Below, one piece after another: positions 5,593 to 14,914 of a DNA stretch of 26,411 nt. The stretch covers positions 1-26,411 of the IMG/VR virus record IMGVR_UViG_3300028423_000645; one strand, 5' to 3'. Every line of letters starts with the position of its first letter. Within the stretch, counting starts at the first letter, position 1. Under the pieces are notes generated by a model that searched no databases, had not been told where the DNA came from, and saw only the letters and a list, made by a program, of their open reading frames with translations. Both the position numbers and the translations under genes were made by a program. This stretch comes from a virus.

Positions 5593-6003
5593 ATGAAAAA
5601 ATTACTTTGGTTAGACGACATTAGAGACCCTAAAGACATCATGTGGCACAACTGGCTTGCAACCCGCGAAGTCAACCCATTTCACTATGATATTACATGG
5701 GTGACAAACTATAACGACTTTGTGGCCTGGATTAAGAAGAATGGCATGCCAGACGTGATTTGCTTTGACCATGATCTAGGTGAAGATGTTGCACCAGAGA
5801 AAGTTTCTAAAGGAATGAGCAAGCACCAAGCACGTATTAAGAAGAGAGAAACCATGAGTGGTTATGAATGTGCAAAATGGCTTGTTGACTGGTGTATTGA
5901 CAAAGACATAGATTTGCCAATGTGGAGAATCCAGAGTGCAAATCCAGTCGGAGCTGATAATATCAACAACTTGCTCTTGAACTATGCAAAATTTAGAGGC
6001 TAA
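5593..6003 (+). CDS. Cyclic-phosphate-processing receiver (cREC) domain protein
   Basis: A one-domain receiver-like protein of 136 aa. LWLDDIRDP (residues 5-13) supplies the acidic pair D8-D9, ICFDHDLG (56-63) supplies the central D59-H60-D61, and SGYECAKWL (89-97) and SANPVGADNI (115-124) match the conserved later segments of this family (WLDD, FDHDL, SxNPVG). The family has been proposed to process cyclic phosphates left on RNA ends, often beside RNA repair enzymes, and is common in phages. The gene starts immediately after the stop of the DUF3008-type gene and precedes an HAD phosphatase of the RNA-repair type. Activity itself has not been read from sequence; the assignment is by motif pattern. 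Confidence 0.8.
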   Translation: MKKLLWLDDIRDPKDIMWHNWLATREVNPFHYDITWVTNYNDFVAWIKKNGMPDVICFDHDLGEDVAPEKVSKGMSKHQARIKKRETMSGYECAKWLVDWCIDKDIDLPMWRIQSANPVGADNINNLLLNYAKFRG

Positions 6004-6086: not shown

Positions 6087-6701
6087 ATGAAAGTAATCTT
6101 CCTAGACAACGATGGTGTAATTTGCCTCTCAAATAATTGGGGTTCTCGGTTCAAAAAACAAAATAAGTTTTTTACCAAGGATAATCAACACAAAGGATTC
6201 GAAGATAATGGACCCGTTGAAGTTCGTTTCGATAACTTTGACAAAAAGGCAATTAAGGTACTTAACTCAATCCTAGAGGAAACTGGAGCCGAGATTGTAG
6301 TATCATCAGATTGGAGGTTTCATGCAAATCTAGACGAGCTAGGTGATTACTACGAGACACAGGGTATCGTTAAGCGACCAATTGGCGTTACTGAGAAGTT
6401 TCACTATACTAATTGGGTCGAAGAAGGCTTCATTAAACCACATGGTGAATTTCCATGGTCTAGGCAAGAAGACTTAGAACAACAGCGACACTTTGAGATT
6501 AAGAGATGGTTGCGAGACCATCCGGAGGCTACACACTGGGTAGCGGTTGATGACCTAAATATGGGCATCCATATTAATGCTAGTGCATATGGTCCTTATG
6601 ATAGGGATTGGGGACTAGAAAACTTCGTATGGACTCCTCGGTCCGGGGAAGGTATTAAACAGAGTGGAATTAAAGATAAAATTTTAAACTTTTTAAGATG
6701 A
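6087..6701 (+). CDS. HAD-superfamily phosphatase, RNA-repair ('Swiss Army Knife') type
   Basis: HAD fold: motif I FLDNDGV with the nucleophile/acid pair D7 and D9, motif II VVSSDWR (residues 71-77, Ser73 or Ser74), and motif IV VAVDDLNMG with D155/D156. The SSDWR form is typical of small HAD domains associated with bacterial RNA repair proteins, which are thought to trim phosphates from damaged RNA ends. It lies just downstream of the cREC-domain gene, supporting an RNA end-processing role. It is the first gene after the host-type promoter and its stop overlaps the next start (ATGA). Substrate is inferred; a nucleotide phosphatase is an alternative. Confidence 0.75.
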   Translation: MKVIFLDNDGVICLSNNWGSRFKKQNKFFTKDNQHKGFEDNGPVEVRFDNFDKKAIKVLNSILEETGAEIVVSSDWRFHANLDELGDYYETQGIVKRPIGVTEKFHYTNWVEEGFIKPHGEFPWSRQEDLEQQRHFEIKRWLRDHPEATHWVAVDDLNMGIHINASAYGPYDRDWGLENFVWTPRSGEGIKQSGIKDKILNFLR

Positions 6702-7392: not shown

Positions 7393-7574
7393 AACCAGAA
7401 TTAGTTAATAAACTACAAGACTTTATCGATGCTTTTGAAACCGAACATGGTGAAGTGGAAGGCTTTGAAATCTCTTTAGACCATCCTATAGTAGAAGGGG
7501 AACGACAAGCTTATGCAGACATTAAAGAGTTTGTTGTAAAGAGAATTGTAAGAGAAGAAATTAAAATTAAATGA
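7389..7574 (+). CDS. Small acidic protein of unknown function (61 aa)
   Basis: Short acidic, probably all-helical protein without recognisable motif. Support is positional: its ATG overlaps the previous TGA (ATGA) and its TGA overlaps the next ATG (ATGA), the same coupling as the rest of the operon. Confidence 0.55.
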   Translation: MKPELVNKLQDFIDAFETEHGEVEGFEISLDHPIVEGERQAYADIKEFVVKRIVREEIKIK

Positions 7575-7942
7575 AGATAGCACTAATAGCACACGACGGC
7601 AAGAAAGCCGATATGGTTGCCTTTGTAATGAAACGGCTTGACTTTTTTAATAGGGGAGATGTTGAGATTGTAGCAACTGGAACAACAGGGACTTCAATTC
7701 AACATGCAGGTGTAGATAAAGTTGAACGTGTAAATAGTGGTCCTCTTGGTGGAGATGCAGAAATTGGAGCAATGGTGGCACGTGGAGAAATGGATGCAAT
7801 AATATTCTTTAGGGATCCATTAGATAAACATCCACATGACGTTGACATCTCAATGCTAATGCGACTATGTGACGTCCATGGTGTGCCACTTGCAACTAAT
7901 TACAAAGCAGCCCATATGTTTATAGAATATTTAAAGACATAG
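7571..7942 (+). CDS. mgsA: Methylglyoxal synthase
   Basis: Converts dihydroxyacetone phosphate to methylglyoxal and phosphate, bypassing lower glycolysis. The 123-residue protein keeps the family pattern throughout: IALIAHDGKK with H8 and D9, ATGTTG (35-40) for phosphate binding, SGPLGGDAEIG (56-66) with D62 aligned to the catalytic Asp71 of the E. coli enzyme, and RDPLDKHPHDVD (81-92) with D82, H89 and D92 aligned to E. coli D91, H98 and D101. It is about 30 aa shorter than E. coli MgsA (152 aa), lacking the N-terminal extension and the C-terminal end. Last gene of the early accessory operon. Activity is likely since all recognised active-site residues are present; the benefit to the phage is unknown. 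Confidence 0.9.
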   Translation: MKIALIAHDGKKADMVAFVMKRLDFFNRGDVEIVATGTTGTSIQHAGVDKVERVNSGPLGGDAEIGAMVARGEMDAIIFFRDPLDKHPHDVDISMLMRLCDVHGVPLATNYKAAHMFIEYLKT

Positions 7943-7999: not shown

Positions 8000-9400
8000 A
8001 TGCTATTAGATATTGAACAAAGAGATCAGGAAGTAATTGTATCATATTATAACAAAGAAGGAAAAGTAGCGTTTAAGCGATATCCAGTTAATCAGTTTGA
8101 AAATTGGGTCGTTACCAATGAAACCGATAGATGGAAAGACAATAAGTTTACAAATTGGGATGGTCGTCCCATCAAAAGACGACGTGCGAGATCATTTAAT
8201 AAATTCTCGCTTGTTTATTTCATGGACTCTTTACCAGAAAAAGATCGTGAAGAAATCTTTGAGTTTAACATTCCTCGCACATACTTTGTCGATATTGAAA
8301 CTGAAATCGTCGATGGCTTTCCTAAAGCAGAAGAAGCAAAGAGTAGAATTTTAACATTCTCTATTATTACCCCAGAACGCAAGGCGATTGTGCTTGGTTT
8401 AGATGATTTATCTAGTGACCAAATTAAAAAGATTGAAGAGGACACTAATAAGCATTTTAAGAATTACGATCAGGATTGGGAATTTTCATATTACAAATTT
8501 AAGGACGAATACAATATGTTGTATACGTTCCTGCATAAATTCCTTCCAAAGTTTCCAATGATGACAGGTTGGAACTTTATTAATTATGACTGGCAATATA
8601 TTGTAAATCGTTGTAAGAGATTGCAAATTGATTTAACAGATATTGCAGTTACAGGTTCATTAGATAAAAATGATAGTAGACCATTACACATGGGTATTCT
8701 TGACTATATGCAATTATATGATAAGTATGATCGTAGTGTAAAGGTTAAAGAATCAAATAAACTTGATTTTGTTTCAAGCCAAGTACTCGATGTCGCAAAG
8801 ATTAAATATACAGGTTCGTTACAGGATTTATATGAAAATGACTTCCAAAAATATGTCTACTATAACGTAGTCGATTCGATTTTGGTTTACTATATTGACG
8901 AAAGGTTAAAGTCAATGGAAGTTATGTTAACATTGGCAACAATTACACAGATGCCATTATATAAAGCAGCGTCACCTGTTGCCGTTACCGAAGCACTTAT
9001 GACAAGAAAGATGGCTGAGAGTAATCATAAGATTGGAGTTGATTATAATAAAGAAGAAGGTCAAAAAGACGGTAAGTACGCAGGTGCTTTTGTGAAACAA
9101 CCAATTGTTGGATATTATTCTGGAGTAAGTGCATTTGACTTTGCATCCCTATATCCATCGGTTATGAGACAGTTCAACATCTCTCCTGATGCATATGTTG
9201 ATATGGTTGCAAAACATGAAATAGCCGAAAGAAGAAAGAATGAGCATGAAATCGTTTGTGAAAATGGCGTAGTATATAAGAAGGAAGATTCTATCCTTAA
9301 AAAGATCTTAAAGGACTTATACACACAGCGTAAAGACTATAAGAAAACATCATATGAGTACTTTACAAAGGCCGATGAATTGAAAAAAAAATTTAGGTAG
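8000..9400 (+). CDS. 43: DNA polymerase gp43, N-terminal half (exonuclease and palm motif A)
   Basis: Family B replicative polymerase, split gene. The proofreading 3'-5' exonuclease is complete: Exo I FVDIETE (D98, E100), Exo II WNFINYDW (D197), Exo III YNVVD (Y288, D292). Palm motif A DFASLYPS follows with catalytic D380. The protein ends at residue 466 in the fingers region, before motif B, so alone it cannot polymerise. The missing part is encoded at 13712-14914. Together the two halves give 866 residues, against 898 in T4 gp43, and motif A to motif B spacing (86+40 residues) is only slightly less than in T4. The end is not ragged: the last residues KADELKKKFR are followed by a clean TAG. 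A nine-A run lies just before the stop. Confidence 0.93.
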   Translation: MLLDIEQRDQEVIVSYYNKEGKVAFKRYPVNQFENWVVTNETDRWKDNKFTNWDGRPIKRRRARSFNKFSLVYFMDSLPEKDREEIFEFNIPRTYFVDIETEIVDGFPKAEEAKSRILTFSIITPERKAIVLGLDDLSSDQIKKIEEDTNKHFKNYDQDWEFSYYKFKDEYNMLYTFLHKFLPKFPMMTGWNFINYDWQYIVNRCKRLQIDLTDIAVTGSLDKNDSRPLHMGILDYMQLYDKYDRSVKVKESNKLDFVSSQVLDVAKIKYTGSLQDLYENDFQKYVYYNVVDSILVYYIDERLKSMEVMLTLATITQMPLYKAASPVAVTEALMTRKMAESNHKIGVDYNKEEGQKDGKYAGAFVKQPIVGYYSGVSAFDFASLYPSVMRQFNISPDAYVDMVAKHEIAERRKNEHEIVCENGVVYKKEDSILKKILKDLYTQRKDYKKTSYEYFTKADELKKKFR

Positions 9401-9430
9401 ATTCAGACATTCTGGCAGAATTATTTGATA

Positions 9431-9438
9431 TATAAATA
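9431..9438 (+). promoter_or_regulatory. Perfect T4 late-promoter box TATAAATA
   Basis: Exact match to the T4 late promoter element, 31 bases after the stop of the polymerase N-half. A transcript from here would start around 9445 and meet the terminator at 9468-9492, so it would be a very short RNA unless termination is incomplete and nrdB (ATG 9521) is read. It may instead be chance in AT-rich DNA. Confidence 0.4.
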
Positions 9439-9467
9439 ACTAGTTTAGTAAACAAGTCAATCCAAAG

Positions 9468-9492
9468 AAGGTCTATCAATTAGGCCTTTTTT
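9468..9492 (+). terminator. Rho-independent terminator after the polymerase N-half
   Basis: Stem AAGGTCT (9468-9474) with AGGCCTT (9482-9488), seven pairs with one G-T wobble, 7-base loop, then a T-run to 9492. It separates the polymerase N-half from nrdB. Confidence 0.75.
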
Positions 9493-9520
9493 AGTCTAAA
9501 AAATAAAGTAATATAAGAAT

Positions 9521-10522
9521 ATGTCATTATTTGAAGAAAGAATAGAATTTAAACCATTTGAATACCCAGTATACTATACAGAGGGTTGGCTAAAACAGGC
9601 GCAAGCATTTTGGTTACATACAGAAATCTCAATGCAGGGAGATGTAAAGGACTGGAATGAAAGAATGCAAGATCATGAAAAGAATTTAGTAGGTAACATT
9701 CTTCTAGGATTTGCACAAACTGAATGTGCAGTTTCGGATTATTGGACTAACATGGTTACAAATTGGTTTCCAAAACATGAGATAAAACAAATGGCAATGA
9801 TGTTTGGATCTCAAGAAACGATTCACGCCACCGCCTACTCATACTTAAATGAAACACTTGGGCTTGAAGATTTCACAGCATTTCTACACGAACCTGCAAC
9901 CGCAGATAAATTTGAACATTTAACTTCGGTGGAAGCCGACTGGACACATGAAGACCTAGCAAAAAGTTCAGAGGCTAGAAAGCAAGTTGCAAGATCGCTT
10001 GCTATTTTCTCAGCATTTGCAGAAGGCGTATCACTTTATAGCTCATTTGCTGTTTTATACTCATTCCAAATGCGCAACTTATTAAAGGGTATTGGCCAAC
10101 AAATGAAATGGTCAGTTCGTGATGAATCATTACATAGCAGAATGGGTTGTCAATTATTTAGACATATGTGCGAAGAATATCCAGAATTAAAAGAAGAGGT
10201 AAAGGATGATGTCATTAGAGCTGCTAAATTAATGGTTGAAATGGAACATAAGTTTATTAATAAGATGTTTGAGATGGGAGACCTTGAAAACCTAAAGGCA
10301 GATGATCTAAAACACTTTATTGTAAAGAGAGCAAACGAAAAAATTGCAGAACTTGGCTATGATGGCCCGTTTATTGAATTTGATGAAGATAAGGCTTCAG
10401 AATTAGATTGGTTTTATCATCTTACTGGCGGTACAACACATACTGACTTCTTTGCGATTAGGCCGACTGACTACTCAAAGGCAGGAGAAGATGAAAACTG
10501 GGATGAAGACGATATTTTCTAA
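9521..10522 (+). CDS. nrdB: Ribonucleotide reductase class I, small (radical) subunit
   Basis: Makes the radical used by NrdA to reduce ribonucleotides to deoxyribonucleotides. The dinuclear metal ligands are visible with the correct spacing: E68, E99 and H102 (in QETIH), E168 (in AFAEGV), E202 and H205 (in DESLH); the 31- and 34-residue gaps equal those in E. coli NrdB. The radical tyrosine position is Y106 (HATAYS). The first ligand is Glu instead of the Asp of classic Fe-type (class Ia/Ib) enzymes, a pattern reported for class Id (dimanganese) NrdB of Flavobacteriia. No N-terminal ATP-cone. The C-terminus is acidic (DENWDEDDIF), as expected for the tail that docks on NrdA. Two bases separate it from the next gene. 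Confidence 0.93.
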   Translation: MSLFEERIEFKPFEYPVYYTEGWLKQAQAFWLHTEISMQGDVKDWNERMQDHEKNLVGNILLGFAQTECAVSDYWTNMVTNWFPKHEIKQMAMMFGSQETIHATAYSYLNETLGLEDFTAFLHEPATADKFEHLTSVEADWTHEDLAKSSEARKQVARSLAIFSAFAEGVSLYSSFAVLYSFQMRNLLKGIGQQMKWSVRDESLHSRMGCQLFRHMCEEYPELKEEVKDDVIRAAKLMVEMEHKFINKMFEMGDLENLKADDLKHFIVKRANEKIAELGYDGPFIEFDEDKASELDWFYHLTGGTTHTDFFAIRPTDYSKAGEDENWDEDDIF

Positions 10523-10524
10523 AC

Positions 10525-10956
10525 ATGAAAATATTTGAAAAAGATTTCTTATCTGATAAAGAGGTAAATGAATTACTTCATATTAATGCCGGCACCTACA
10601 AAATGAACAGGTATCAGCATCCAATAGTTGACAAGATAGTTAAACGCCTTCTTGATGATTTCAATTTTGAAGTTAAAGAAGAATCCTATTGGAGGATAGA
10701 ACAGCATCCAACGGGACACAGTTGGCACATTGATACCGGAGATAAAGGTCACATGTTATGGTGCCAGGTTGGTGTTTCTATTTTACTAACAAGTTCATTT
10801 ACCGGGGGTGAAACTTACTACGCAGATGACAATAATAAAACAAATGTCATGCTACAGGAAAGAGGTATTGGTGATTTATGTGCCCATACTTCAGATCAAT
10901 GGCATATGGTTACACCTCATAAAGGCAAGAGGATTGTCTTTTTAATGTTTATATAA
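10525..10956 (+). CDS. 2-oxoglutarate/Fe(II)-dependent oxygenase (prolyl-4-hydroxylase-like)
   Basis: A short double-stranded beta-helix oxygenase. SWHIDTGD contains the H68-x-D70 iron ligands, WHMVTPHKGKR the distal ligand H127 and the 2-oxoglutarate-binding R136, and GGETYY (94-99) the usual conserved turn. At 143 aa it is a minimal catalytic domain. It is inserted between nrdB and nrdA with 2- and 6-base gaps, so it is co-expressed with ribonucleotide reductase. Similar small oxygenases are frequent in T4-like phages of marine bacteria, with unproven substrates. A role in nucleotide or protein modification is possible; the sequence does not decide. Confidence 0.85.
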   Translation: MKIFEKDFLSDKEVNELLHINAGTYKMNRYQHPIVDKIVKRLLDDFNFEVKEESYWRIEQHPTGHSWHIDTGDKGHMLWCQVGVSILLTSSFTGGETYYADDNNKTNVMLQERGIGDLCAHTSDQWHMVTPHKGKRIVFLMFI

Positions 10957-10962
10957 AATAAA

Positions 10963-12819
10963 ATGTTTAATATGTTTAAAAATAATAAAGAAAAATCAGA
11001 AGAAACAAAAATGAATGATAAACCATTTGAAAATTTTGGATCTGATTTAGGCTGGGAACTTGGAGTAGACTTTCCAACTTGGGCTAATACTGAGATCTAT
11101 GTAAAGACAATTAGTAATGGCTACCTTTTAGAAGGAGAAACACCTAAAGATGCATATTGGAGAGTTGCAACTACAGTGGCGAAAAGACTACAGAGACCTG
11201 AAATGGCAAGCAAATTCTTTGATTATATTTGGAAAGGATGGTTGAACTTAGCTTCTCCAGTCCTATCAAATACTGGAACAGAGAGAGGCCTTCCAATTTC
11301 ATGTTTTGGTATTGACGTTGCAGATTCTATCCACGACATTGGAGCAAAGAATCTTGAAATGATGTTGTTAGCAAAACATGGAGGCGGTGTTGGTATCGGT
11401 ATTAATCAAATTAGACCGGCAGGTGCAAAGATTCGTGGTAATGGTACAAGCGATGGCGTAGTTCCATTCTGTAAGATTTATGATTCTACGATTCTTGCAA
11501 CAAACCAAGGTTCAGTTCGACGTGGAGCTGCTTCAGTAAATATTGATATTGAACATAAAGACTTTTGGGAATGGCTTGAAATTCGTGAACCAAAGGGAGA
11601 TGCAAACAGACAATCATTGAACCTTCACCAATGTGTCGTTGTTCCTGATGGATTTATGCAAAAAATTAAAGAGGGAGATAAAGAGGCACGTAAGCGATGG
11701 GCTGCCCTACTTAGAAAGCGTAGAGCTACAGGTGAACCATACATTATGTTTAAGGGCAATGTAAATAACGCTAATCCTGAGGCATATAAACAAAATGGCC
11801 TAAAAGTTTATATGACTAATATCTGTTCTGAGATTGCACTCCACACGGACGAAAATCATTCATTCGTATGTTGTCTATCATCATTGAACTTAGCAAAATA
11901 TGATGAGTGGAAGGATACCGATCTTATTTATACAGCAACGTGGTTCTTGGATGGTGTACTTGAGGAATTTATTCAAAAGGCAAAATTCATGAGAGGGTTT
12001 GAAAACTCTATCAGATCTGCTGAAAAGGGTAGAGCACTTGGCCTTGGAGTTCTTGGATGGCACACTTACCTACAAGATCGTAACATTCCATTTGAAGGAT
12101 TAACAGCACAATTTGAAACGCGTAAAATCTTTAGTGAATTAAAGACTGAAAGCGAAAAAGCAAGCCGCGACATGGCTAAAGAAATGGGAGAGCCATTATG
12201 GTGTGTTGGTACTGGAATGAGAAACACTCACCTAAGAGCAGTTGCACCAACTGTTTCTAATTCTAAGCTCAGTGGTAATATTTCCCCAGGTGTAGAACCA
12301 TGGGCAGCAAACGTATTTACTGAACAAACTGCAAAGGGAACATTTATTCGTAAGAATCAAACACTTGAAATGTTTTTAGATCAAGCAGGCCTTAATACGA
12401 AATACATATGGGACAAGATTCTTGAAGATGGAGGTTCAGTACAAGGTATTGAAGAACTTGACAATTGGTATGGTAAGCATAGTGTAATTGGAGAATTTAT
12501 AAGCAAGGATGAATATGATCTGCTCGATATAGCGCAACGAGAAGAATATACACCAATTAAAAATGTATTTTTAACATTTAAGGAAATTAATCAAATGGAG
12601 TTAGTAAGACAGGCCGGTGTTAGACAACAGTATGTTGATCAGTCAGTTTCACTAAACTTAGCATTCCCAAATACAGCAGATCCTAAGTTTATTAATCAGG
12701 TTCACCTTGAAGCTTACGATCAAGGCATTAAAACGCTCTACTATATGAGAACTGAAAGTGTTTTAAGAGGAGACATTGCAACCAGAGCAACAATTGATTG
12801 CTTAAGCTGTGATGGGTAA
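10963..12819 (+). CDS. nrdA: Ribonucleotide reductase class I, large (catalytic) subunit
   Basis: Catalytic subunit that reduces ribonucleoside diphosphates. Active-site cysteine pair C114 (LPISCFG) and C303 or C304 (VCCLSS), the radical cysteine in NICSE (N286, C288, E290), the radical-transfer tyrosines Y593-Y594 (LYYMR), and a C-terminal C613-x-x-C616 pair (CLSCDG) for reduction by thioredoxin or glutaredoxin. At 618 aa it is shorter than E. coli NrdA (761 aa) and lacks an N-terminal ATP-cone, so dATP inhibition through that domain is absent; NrdB has none either. An internal Met17 could be an alternative start, but the AAAATAAA box favours 10963. Followed by a structured 147-base gap. Confidence 0.93.
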   Translation: MFNMFKNNKEKSEETKMNDKPFENFGSDLGWELGVDFPTWANTEIYVKTISNGYLLEGETPKDAYWRVATTVAKRLQRPEMASKFFDYIWKGWLNLASPVLSNTGTERGLPISCFGIDVADSIHDIGAKNLEMMLLAKHGGGVGIGINQIRPAGAKIRGNGTSDGVVPFCKIYDSTILATNQGSVRRGAASVNIDIEHKDFWEWLEIREPKGDANRQSLNLHQCVVVPDGFMQKIKEGDKEARKRWAALLRKRRATGEPYIMFKGNVNNANPEAYKQNGLKVYMTNICSEIALHTDENHSFVCCLSSLNLAKYDEWKDTDLIYTATWFLDGVLEEFIQKAKFMRGFENSIRSAEKGRALGLGVLGWHTYLQDRNIPFEGLTAQFETRKIFSELKTESEKASRDMAKEMGEPLWCVGTGMRNTHLRAVAPTVSNSKLSGNISPGVEPWAANVFTEQTAKGTFIRKNQTLEMFLDQAGLNTKYIWDKILEDGGSVQGIEELDNWYGKHSVIGEFISKDEYDLLDIAQREEYTPIKNVFLTFKEINQMELVRQAGVRQQYVDQSVSLNLAFPNTADPKFINQVHLEAYDQGIKTLYYMRTESVLRGDIATRATIDCLSCDG

Positions 12820-12820
12820 G

Positions 12821-12907
12821 ATACGGTGACTTGTAATACAGTCACATTTTAGGACCGTTACATCGTTAACGGATTTAGGCCAGGGAATTCGCTACTCCCT
12901 GGCTTTA
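12821..12907 (+). other. Three consecutive hairpins in the nrdA-clamp gap (terminator and/or structured RNA)
   Basis: Stem 1 GTGAC 12826-12830 with GTCAC 12841-12845, followed by ATTTT. Stem 2 CCGTTA 12855-12860 with TAACGG 12867-12872. Stem 3 GCCAGGGA 12879-12886 with TCCCTGGC 12896-12903, followed by TTTAT. Stem 3 is the strongest but its T-run is poor, so it is a weak terminator at best; the series may be a structured RNA or a leader for the clamp gene. Confidence 0.5.
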
Positions 12908-12966
12908 TGTGAAACAGTTTGCCTATCCTACATATAATCTTTAAATTATTCAAACAAATAAAAAAT

Positions 12967-13710
12967 ATGAAATTAGTAATTGATCGAGTTGACCAACATG
13001 CCCTTACAAATTTTATTAATCGTGTAAAGCTAATTGATTCATTCATCTATATGAAGATGGATCCTAATCGTATTACTTCAGCCGTTTATCTTCCACAAAG
13101 AGATGCAGTGAAGTACCATGCAGTAAACACAAGTGCTATCTTTCAATTAGGTGAAATTCCTGAAACTAACAAAGAAATGAAAATATCGTTCTTTGATGGT
13201 GCTAAGGTAATTGATGCAATCAAGCATTTTGATAGTGACGCAATCAAAGGTGAAATTGAATTTATTGAAAATGATGAAGATCTGGTAGCTTCAACACTTC
13301 GCCTATTTAATGATGAGCTTGAAATTACACTAGCTTGTTCTGAACCTTCTTTAGGATTTAAAGACTTGACAGGCGATCAAATTGAAGCAATCTTTTCTAA
13401 GGATGGTAGCGAATTTAACTTTGAATTAGATACGTATTCTATTAATAAAGTTAAAAATCTATTCTCTCTTGATAAAGATGAAACGTTTGCGATCAAGGCA
13501 AATGGTAATGGAGTTAATGTTAAAGGTAAATCTTTTAATGTGGTAATTAACCCAGAAAGTAATGGTAGTGGAGATGTTACAGTATATAAGAAGTATTTGA
13601 ACCTGCTCGATAAAGAAGAGCAAAGGGTTTATATTTCTCCATCAAAGGTTGTTTTTGCTTCAAAAGATAGCGAGACACTTTTAACTGTATCAACTTGCCA
13701 AACTTCCTAA
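12967..13710 (+). CDS. 45: Sliding clamp (gp45-like)
   Basis: A 247-aa acidic, beta-rich protein without enzyme motif, of the length of T4 gp45 (228 aa), lying directly before the polymerase C-half; T4 also keeps gene 45 close to 43. The pattern KISFFDGAKVIDAIKHFD, the ELEITLACSE segment and the repeated strand-turn-strand layout fit a clamp. Clamps encircle DNA, hold the polymerase and, in T4, also activate late transcription with gp33 and gp55. I chose the ATG at 12967 because an A-rich box (AAATAAAAAAT) precedes it; an upstream TTG at 12919 would add 16 implausible residues. Assignment is by context and fold pattern, not a signature motif. Confidence 0.7.
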   Translation: MKLVIDRVDQHALTNFINRVKLIDSFIYMKMDPNRITSAVYLPQRDAVKYHAVNTSAIFQLGEIPETNKEMKISFFDGAKVIDAIKHFDSDAIKGEIEFIENDEDLVASTLRLFNDELEITLACSEPSLGFKDLTGDQIEAIFSKDGSEFNFELDTYSINKVKNLFSLDKDETFAIKANGNGVNVKGKSFNVVINPESNGSGDVTVYKKYLNLLDKEEQRVYISPSKVVFASKDSETLLTVSTCQTS

Positions 13711-13711
13711 T

Positions 13712-14914
13712 ATGAATATAGAAGAGTTAAAGAATAAACCAACCGATCAGTTAAACAAAGAAGAAGCAGAGCTCCTCATACAACATTATGAGGATCTTTC
13801 GGCCAAGTATACTGCATATGAACAAGCAGTAAAGGTAACTCTAAACTCTATCTATGGTGCATTTGGTAATAAGTGGTTTCACTTCTTTAACCTAAACATT
13901 GCAGAATCAATCACATTACAGGGACAGGACGCAATTTTATACTCTGAAAGTATATTAAATAAGTACTTTCAAGAATTCTTTCATAAAGACACTTTAGTAC
14001 ATGATAAGTTTAATATTAAAGTTAGGCATCAACTTGAAAGACCATCTGTAATTTATATTGATACCGATTCATGCTATGTTCAGTTTGAGGAAATGTATAA
14101 TTCAATTGAATGGCTTGACGAAGAACTGCCAATCGATGCATTTATTATTGAATTATACAATTTCAGATTGAAAGATTATATTGTCAAGGCAATGGAAAAA
14201 TATGCCGAAAAAAGAAACACTGACAATTATCTAATATTTGAACTTGAAACCGTAGCGTATGGCGGTATTTGGATGAGTAAGAAAAAGTACATTCAAAATA
14301 TCGCATGGGACGATAAGCTTGAAGTGACTGATCGACATCCTTCACTTAAAAAGATTAAGACAATTGGATTTGATACTATTCAGTCATCAACTCCATCATT
14401 CGCAAGAGCTAAATTGGTTGATGCTCTTAAGATCTTATTTAAGAAGCATAAAAATCCAACTGCTGAAGATTTACAAGAGCTTGTTAACTTTATGAAGCAG
14501 GCCAAGACTGAGTTTAAATTAGCAGACCTTGACGATATTGCATTCAATAAGAGAACAAACAATATTGAAAAGTATATTGTTGATGATCAGATTGAATTAC
14601 AGTTTGGTCTTAAATGTCCTCCGAATGTCAAGGCTGCAGGATTTTATAACTATCTATTGAATAATAACAAAAAATATAAGAACAAATATAAATTAATTGG
14701 TAATGGTGAGAAGCTTAAGATTTATCATGTTAAAGGTAACTTAAGCGATACCTTTGCATATATGCCAGGTGAACATCCATATGAGTTTGCACCTCCAGTT
14801 GATTATGATATGCAATTTGAAAAGTCAATGATTGACCCATTAAATCGCGTTTTAAAAGCAATTGGACTACAAACACTTGATACTAATCTAATTTATGCTT
14901 CGGCACTATTTTAA
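13712..14914 (+). CDS. 43: DNA polymerase gp43, C-terminal half (palm motifs B and C, thumb)
   Basis: Completes the family B polymerase. Motif B KVTLNSIYG (residues 41-49), motif C YIDTDS (115-120, catalytic D117 and D119), KKKY (195-198 approximately, DNA contact in the palm) and a thumb region follow. It begins with about 40 residues of fingers helix, so the break lies in the tip of the fingers. It has its own ATG one base after the clamp stop. The last residues, YASALF, resemble the hydrophobic C-terminal clamp-binding tail of T4 gp43. No intein or homing-endonuclease motifs are present at either break end, so the parts most likely assemble as two subunits. The upstream half is at 8000-9400. 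Confidence 0.92.
   Translation: MNIEELKNKPTDQLNKEEAELLIQHYEDLSAKYTAYEQAVKVTLNSIYGAFGNKWFHFFNLNIAESITLQGQDAILYSESILNKYFQEFFHKDTLVHDKFNIKVRHQLERPSVIYIDTDSCYVQFEEMYNSIEWLDEELPIDAFIIELYNFRLKDYIVKAMEKYAEKRNTDNYLIFELETVAYGGIWMSKKKYIQNIAWDDKLEVTDRHPSLKKIKTIGFDTIQSSTPSFARAKLVDALKILFKKHKNPTAEDLQELVNFMKQAKTEFKLADLDDIAFNKRTNNIEKYIVDDQIELQFGLKCPPNVKAAGFYNYLLNNNKKYKNKYKLIGNGEKLKIYHVKGNLSDTFAYMPGEHPYEFAPPVDYDMQFEKSMIDPLNRVLKAIGLQTLDTNLIYASALF

What the first reader, a model, noticed from the sequence alone, without database searches (positions are those of the whole stretch)
8000..14914. Replicative DNA polymerase split into two genes 4.3 kb apart
Exonuclease plus motif A are at 8000-9400 and motifs B and C at 13712-14914, with nrdB, an oxygenase, nrdA and the clamp gene between. 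All catalytic residues are present and the lengths sum to 866 aa, near T4 gp43 (898). No intein, intron or homing-endonuclease gene is seen at either break. Split gp43 is known in some T4-like phages of Aeromonas; here the intervening DNA is a normal nucleotide-metabolism block, so the halves seem to have been separated by gene insertion or rearrangement and to work as two subunits.
Basis: partly seen in the sequence, partly recalled or inferred. Interest (0 to 1): 0.75.

Follow-up and report, generated by a model that had tools for sequence, protein, structure and literature searches.

The report
Ancient two-gene phage DNA polymerase
The copying enzyme of this marine phage is encoded as two separate genes that almost certainly assemble into one enzyme, and the same split, made once long ago, is shared by a large lineage of phages (mostly infecting Bacteroidota) that includes some of the largest known; similar but independent splits were already known in a few T4-like phages.

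Summary
A T4/RB69-type family B DNA polymerase is encoded as an N half (8000-9400: exonuclease, motif A, first fingers helix) and a C half (13712-14914: second fingers helix, motifs B and C, thumb). nrdB, a small protein, nrdA and a putative clamp lie between. It is no assembly artefact: 126 IMG/VR loci (62 distinct pairs) show the same order, catalytic residues invariant, dN/dS about 0.03 in both halves. No full-length polymerase occurs in 20 long relatives (100-176 kb) or in distant genomes with the split. The break lies at the tip of the fingers with no residues missing and no intein, intron or homing endonuclease. Halves and putative clamp coevolve (r about 0.92), while the nrd cassette between them is swapped independently. 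The C half starts 1-3 nt after the putative clamp gene. One old split explains this group plus LR756500-504, Lak, PAU, MA9V and Tenacibaculum phages, where halves can be over 100 kb apart; only MaF61 nearby is fused. Aeromonas and Acinetobacter T4-like phages split independently at the same site. Best reading: an obligate two-subunit polymerase assembling without covalent joining. The kind is known (gp43A/gp43B); depth, breadth and clamp linkage appear new.

The parts
8000..9400 (+). Polymerase N half, 466 aa: N-terminal domain, 3'-5' exonuclease (DIET at aa 98), palm motif A (DFASLYPS at aa 380), first fingers helix (QRKDYKK at aa 443) with a 17-aa tail
9464..9492 (+). Terminator-like hairpin after the N half, followed by a T run; similar hairpins follow the N half in 38 of 62 distinct loci
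9521..10522 (+). nrdB, ribonucleotide reductase small subunit (swappable cassette with nrdA)
10525..10956 (+).
10963..12819 (+). nrdA, ribonucleotide reductase large subunit
12877..12905 (+). Strong hairpin upstream of the putative clamp gene; terminator-like hairpins at this place in 58 of 62 distinct loci
12967..13710 (+). Putative sliding clamp; stop codon 1 nt before the C-half ATG
13712..14914 (+). Polymerase C half, 400 aa: 40-aa leader with second fingers helix, motif B (KVTLNSIYG at aa 41), motif C (YIDTDS at aa 115), thumb, hydrophobic C-terminal tail LIYASALF

Best explanation
The two genes encode two subunits of one replicative family B DNA polymerase of the T4/RB69 type. The chain is interrupted at the tip of the fingers, between its two antiparallel helices, where neither palm nor exonuclease core is cut. 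The N half is probably made from its own transcription unit and the C half from a tightly spaced unit behind the putative clamp gene. The halves then associate without covalent joining through the shared palm and the paired fingers helices, forming a normal exonuclease-polymerase whose C-terminal tail can dock on the clamp. The split happened once in the ancestor of a large phage lineage, mostly of Bacteroidota, and has been kept; the nrd cassette between the halves is exchangeable cargo. Shown here: gene structure, conservation, break site, co-inheritance, a tree compatible with a single origin, absence of intein and intron, absence of another family B polymerase in relatives. Inferred: physical assembly, activity, transcription units, clamp identity and docking.
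For: Both halves align collinearly to RB69 gp43 with no overlap. Residues between the fingers motif and motif B: 57 in the window, 28-72 in fused relatives, so nothing is missing. In 62 distinct N/C pairs the catalytic residues are invariant; dN/dS medians are 0.027 (N) and 0.038 (C). Distance correlation N-C is 0.918 and N-clamp 0.924, against 0.09-0.22 for polymerase halves with nrdA/nrdB overall; within one nrd type N-C is 0.911 against 0.68-0.77 with nrd genes and 0.76-0.80 with recA. No further PF00136 locus in 20 contigs of 100-176 kb, LR756500, PAU or MA9V-2, and no full-length polymerase in the further complete records with the split. Tree: 20-row clade at 100/100, 19 of them split; the 19 as one clade is not rejected (p 0.53) while all split rows together are (p 3e-35). 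The putative clamp sits between the halves also in LR756500, PAU, MA9V-2, PTm1 and pT24. Putative clamp stop to C-half ATG: 1-3 nt in 57 of 62 loci. Biochemical precedent: Aeromonas phage 25 gp43A and gp43B co-purify and have polymerase activity (PMC2988022).
Against: No direct evidence of binding or activity. AlphaFold models of the halves alone are poor (pLDDT 57 and 68), worst in the palm segments that would need the partner; no complex could be modelled. Clamp identity is weak. MaF61, a fused long-branch relative, is not firmly placed: the N-half tree puts it inside the split group, which would need a re-fusion or transfer.
Confidence: 0.88

Rival explanations
1. The halves are joined covalently after all, by trans-splicing of RNA (a split intron) or protein (a split intein).
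For: Split inteins are real in this lineage: the C halves of LR756500, Lak-A2 and PTm1 are themselves cut at motif C and carry intein-splicing domains on both sides.
Against: At the fingers break the window halves end and begin with polymerase helices and carry no intein domain; no intron RNA family is found at E up to 1. Terminator-like hairpins and several genes intervene. In other genomes the halves lie over 100 kb apart, often on opposite strands.
Confidence: 0.03
2. Only one half is functional; a host or other phage polymerase replicates the genome, and the halves are relics or specialised proteins (for instance a free exonuclease).
For: The host replicase would always be present; the window's genome is incomplete.
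Against: Both halves are under strong purifying selection with invariant polymerase and exonuclease residues, and coevolve. Palm motif A is in one half and motif C in the other, so neither could polymerise alone. T4-type replication genes surround them: UvsX/RecA-like, DnaB-type helicase, gp46/gp47-like.
Confidence: 0.06
3. Assembly or binning artefact that inserted foreign genes into one polymerase gene.
For: The window is a single metagenomic contig.
Against: 126 loci have the same order and strand with gaps of 3.65-5.77 kb; complete genomes of isolates PAU, MA9V-2, PTm1 and pT24 are split too.
Confidence: 0.01

Closest known systems
gp43A/gp43B of Aeromonas phages 25 and 44RR2.8t
   Same: T4-type polymerase cut at the fingers tip into about 500 + 390 aa; no intein at this break; phage 25 halves co-purify and are active (PMC2988022).
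   Different: Independent origin; halves 49 nt apart (44RR) or separated by one homing endonuclease gene (25), and 25 also has an intron in 43B. Here nucleotide-metabolism genes and a putative clamp lie between, and the split is fixed across a deep lineage.
Split polymerase of Acinetobacter T4-like phages (PhT2, ZZ1)
   Same: Same break site; small genes between the halves over 2.1 kb; the ZZ1 split is noted in PMC4177764.
   Different: PhT2 groups with fused T6 in Straboviridae; a separate event.
Sphingomonas phage PAU gp105/gp110, Chryseobacterium phage MA9V-2, Tenacibaculum phages PTm1 and pT24, Prevotella Lak phages, huge phages LR756500-LR756504
   Same: Same split by tree and break site. 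In PAU, MA9V-2, PTm1, pT24 and LR756500 the putative clamp also lies between the halves.
   Different: Other or no genes between; halves over 100 kb apart in LR756501, LR756502, LR756504 and Lak-A2; an additional split intein at motif C in LR756500, Lak-A2 and PTm1.
Split-intein PolB (Aes123 PolB1 and relatives)
   Same: A polymerase B encoded in pieces in T4-like phages.
   Different: There an intein rejoins the chain; here the break is in the fingers and no intein is present.

Membership tests
T4/RB69-type family B DNA polymerase (gp43) | Exonuclease and palm domains with motifs A, B and C | tested here: met
T4/RB69-type family B DNA polymerase (gp43) | Groups with T4-like polymerases in a tree | tested here: inconclusive
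   A separate, fully supported clade on a long branch (1.5 changes per column) among T4-like polymerases; exact placement weak
Split gp43 (gp43A/gp43B) | Two ORFs, break between motif A and motif B in the fingers | tested here: met
Split gp43 (gp43A/gp43B) | Halves co-purify and polymerise | not testable with these tools
   Reported for phage 25 (PMC2988022)
Split gp43 (gp43A/gp43B) | Common origin with the Aeromonas and Acinetobacter splits | tested here: not met
   AU p 3e-35
Intein-split PolB | Intein N and C domains at the break | tested here: not met
   positive control
Intron- or homing-endonuclease-split gene | Group I or II intron or endonuclease gene at the break | tested here: not met
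   (Rfam, window); ORFs between the halves in 62 loci were clustered and ten of the variable ones tested with Pfam, no endonuclease found
Sliding clamp (gp45) for 12967-13710 | Sequence or fold match to gp45/PCNA | tested here: inconclusive
   hhalign P 4.7e-4 against 0.07-0.44 for controls; no PDB, Pfam or PHROG hit

The most novel reading that the evidence does not exclude
The replicative polymerase of an entire deep phage lineage has been an obligate heterodimer since its ancestor, and the split is functional rather than merely tolerated: the C half is made with its clamp as one unit while the exonuclease-bearing N half is expressed separately, so holoenzyme assembly, or the balance of exonuclease and polymerase, is a point of control.
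Probability: 0.2. Interest if true: 0.75.

Novelty: new variant of a known kind. Interest (0 to 1): 0.52.

Why it matters
A single-chain enzyme whose active site is built from both sides of the cut has persisted as two chains over great divergence, even with the genes over 100 kb apart. That makes it a natural test of how far an essential replicase can be taken apart, gives a marker character for a huge-phage lineage whose polymerases look like fragments in annotation, and supplies naturally evolved split points for polymerase engineering. Independent breaks at the same fingers tip in Aeromonas and Acinetobacter phages argue that this is the permissive site of the fold.

Tried and rejected
MaF61 as a seed for more fused relatives: none found in IMG/VR. 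A mixed N-half alignment was too divergent for a pattern search. The LR756500 N half as seed found one copy of that phage itself and otherwise distant (25-31% identity) polymerases; PAU found only itself. Fold search of the separate halves puts RB69 gp43 at top rank, but with poor models (rmsd 9-18 A) this adds little to the sequence evidence. The putative clamp was not found in LR756502, LR756504, Lak-A2 or MaF61 with the profile used, nor in GTDB genomes. Literature searches found no description of this lineage-wide split in open papers; Jug-phage polymerase genes are reported as split by intervening endonuclease sequences (PMC12363816), and a jumbo-phage survey describes a split Pol III-like protein, not a split PolB (PMC7824862). 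Subscription papers, including Petrov 2010 J Mol Biol, could not be read. Considered and rejected: assembly error, pseudogene, stop-codon recoding (each half has a proper start and neither half continues across the break).

Full report
CHECK OF THE OBSERVATION. The two ORFs exist as described. The first carries the family B exonuclease domain and the first part of the polymerase domain, the second the rest. Against solved structures the best match of both is RB69 gp43, in collinear, non-overlapping pieces: RB69 85-487 and 536-819; with a profile the second piece reaches 529-833. Extrapolating, the break lies near RB69 505-520, which is within the fingers domain (RB69 469-572, from general knowledge). 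nrdB and nrdA are secure; the oxygenase and clamp labels are tentative.

NOT AN ARTEFACT, NOT UNIQUE. Searches of IMG/VR with each half gave 80 loci each. Both complete halves occur in 126 loci, 62 distinct pairs, always N-nrdB-nrdA-clamp-C on one strand, with 3.65-5.77 kb between. No fused gene was seen among them. Twenty contigs of 100-176 kb and the records of LR756500, PAU and MA9V-2 have no PF00136 locus outside the known pieces; the further complete records with the split have no full-length polymerase (LR756502 shows one stray 38-position match below the cut-off).

BREAK SITE. In all split forms the N half ends shortly after the first fingers helix and the C half opens with the second fingers helix leading into motif B. 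The window and its near relatives have a 17-26 aa N tail and a 40-43 aa C leader; fused enzymes have 28-72 residues in that interval. So the fingers are complete and simply cut at the tip. The AlphaFold models, though poor overall, show a long helix on each side of the cut (aa 432-465 and 16-50).

BOTH HALVES ARE FUNCTIONAL AND BELONG TOGETHER. Exonuclease and polymerase catalytic residues are invariant over 62 distinct pairs; dN/dS is about 0.03 in each half. Evolutionary distances of N, C and the putative clamp correlate at 0.91-0.92. nrdA and nrdB correlate with each other at 0.995 but with the polymerase only at 0.09-0.22, because 13 of 62 loci carry a different nrd type in the same place. 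Without those loci the N-C and N-clamp correlations still exceed those with nrdA, nrdB and recA. Position alone does not explain this, since the nrd genes lie closer to the N half than the C half does. Further cargo between nrdA and clamp varies (ferritin-like, 2-hydroxyacid dehydrogenase, polyA polymerase-like, glycosyltransferase); no homing endonuclease was found.

EXPRESSION ANATOMY. The C-half ATG follows the putative clamp stop by 1-3 nt in 57 of 62 loci. Terminator-like hairpins lie upstream of the clamp in 58 of 62 and after the N half in 38 of 62 (the two window hairpins are at 9464-9492 and 12877-12905). The window hairpin before the clamp is strong, but its T run was too short for the strict scan. 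This suggests separate units for N half, nrd cassette and clamp-C half, which remains to be tested by RNA-seq.

ORIGIN. In a tree of 30 polymerases, the window group, LR756500-LR756504, Lak-A2, PAU, MA9V-2, PTm1 and pT24 form one fully supported clade with the fused MaF61 inside or beside it. Holding the 19 split members together costs nothing (p 0.53), so one split after MaF61 branched off suffices; separate trees of the halves agree on the clade but place MaF61 differently. Holding the 19 together with the Aeromonas 44RR and Acinetobacter PhT2 splits is rejected (p 3e-35), so the same site was cut at least once more within Straboviridae; since 44RR and PhT2 are not sisters (PhT2 groups with fused T6), that was two cuts, or one cut and a re-fusion. 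In LR756500, PAU, MA9V-2, PTm1 and pT24 the clamp homologue lies between the halves, upstream of the C half, so N-clamp-C is the probable ancestral order. In LR756501, LR756502, LR756504 and Lak-A2 the halves are over 100 kb apart, on opposite strands in each: they need no linkage.

A SECOND CUT ELSEWHERE. In LR756500, Lak-A2 and PTm1 the C half is itself split at motif C, with intein-splicing domains on both sides. This is a useful control: an intein at the fingers break would have been seen.

MECHANISM AND NOVELTY. The simplest mechanism is non-covalent assembly of two subunits, as reported for Aeromonas phage 25 gp43A/gp43B, which co-purify and are active (PMC2988022). Split gp43 is thus a known kind. 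What appears unreported in the open literature searched is one old split fixed across a deep, mostly Bacteroidota-infecting lineage including huge phages, its linkage to a clamp-like gene, and the independent exchange of the nrd cassette lodged between the halves.

Noticed in passing
window 9521-12819 and loci L011, L050, L059, L075, L161: The nrdB-nrdA cassette is replaced as a unit by a different type (about 42% and 31% identical) in 13 of 62 distinct loci, at exactly the same place.
   Followed up: partly
L004 (LR756500), L170 (Lak-A2), L172 (PTm1): The polymerase C half is cut again at motif C with split-intein domains, making a three-gene polymerase; PTm1 has a VSR endonuclease gene between the intein halves.
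   Followed up: partly
window 5593-6003 and 6087-6701: Adjacent genes with a cyclic-phosphate-processing receiver domain (cREC_REC) and a HAD domain of RNA-repair proteins (HAD_SAK_2).
   Followed up: no
window 7571-7942: MGS-like domain protein directly upstream of the polymerase N half.
   Followed up: no
L012:8473-8910 and similar in 15 loci: Small protein with a signal-peptide-like start between nrdA and the clamp, of a look common in Bacteroidota, a hint about the host.
   Followed up: no
L174 (Flavobacterium phage MaF61) 7410-10394: Fused 994-aa polymerase on a very long branch beside or inside the split clade; possible re-fusion.
   Followed up: partly
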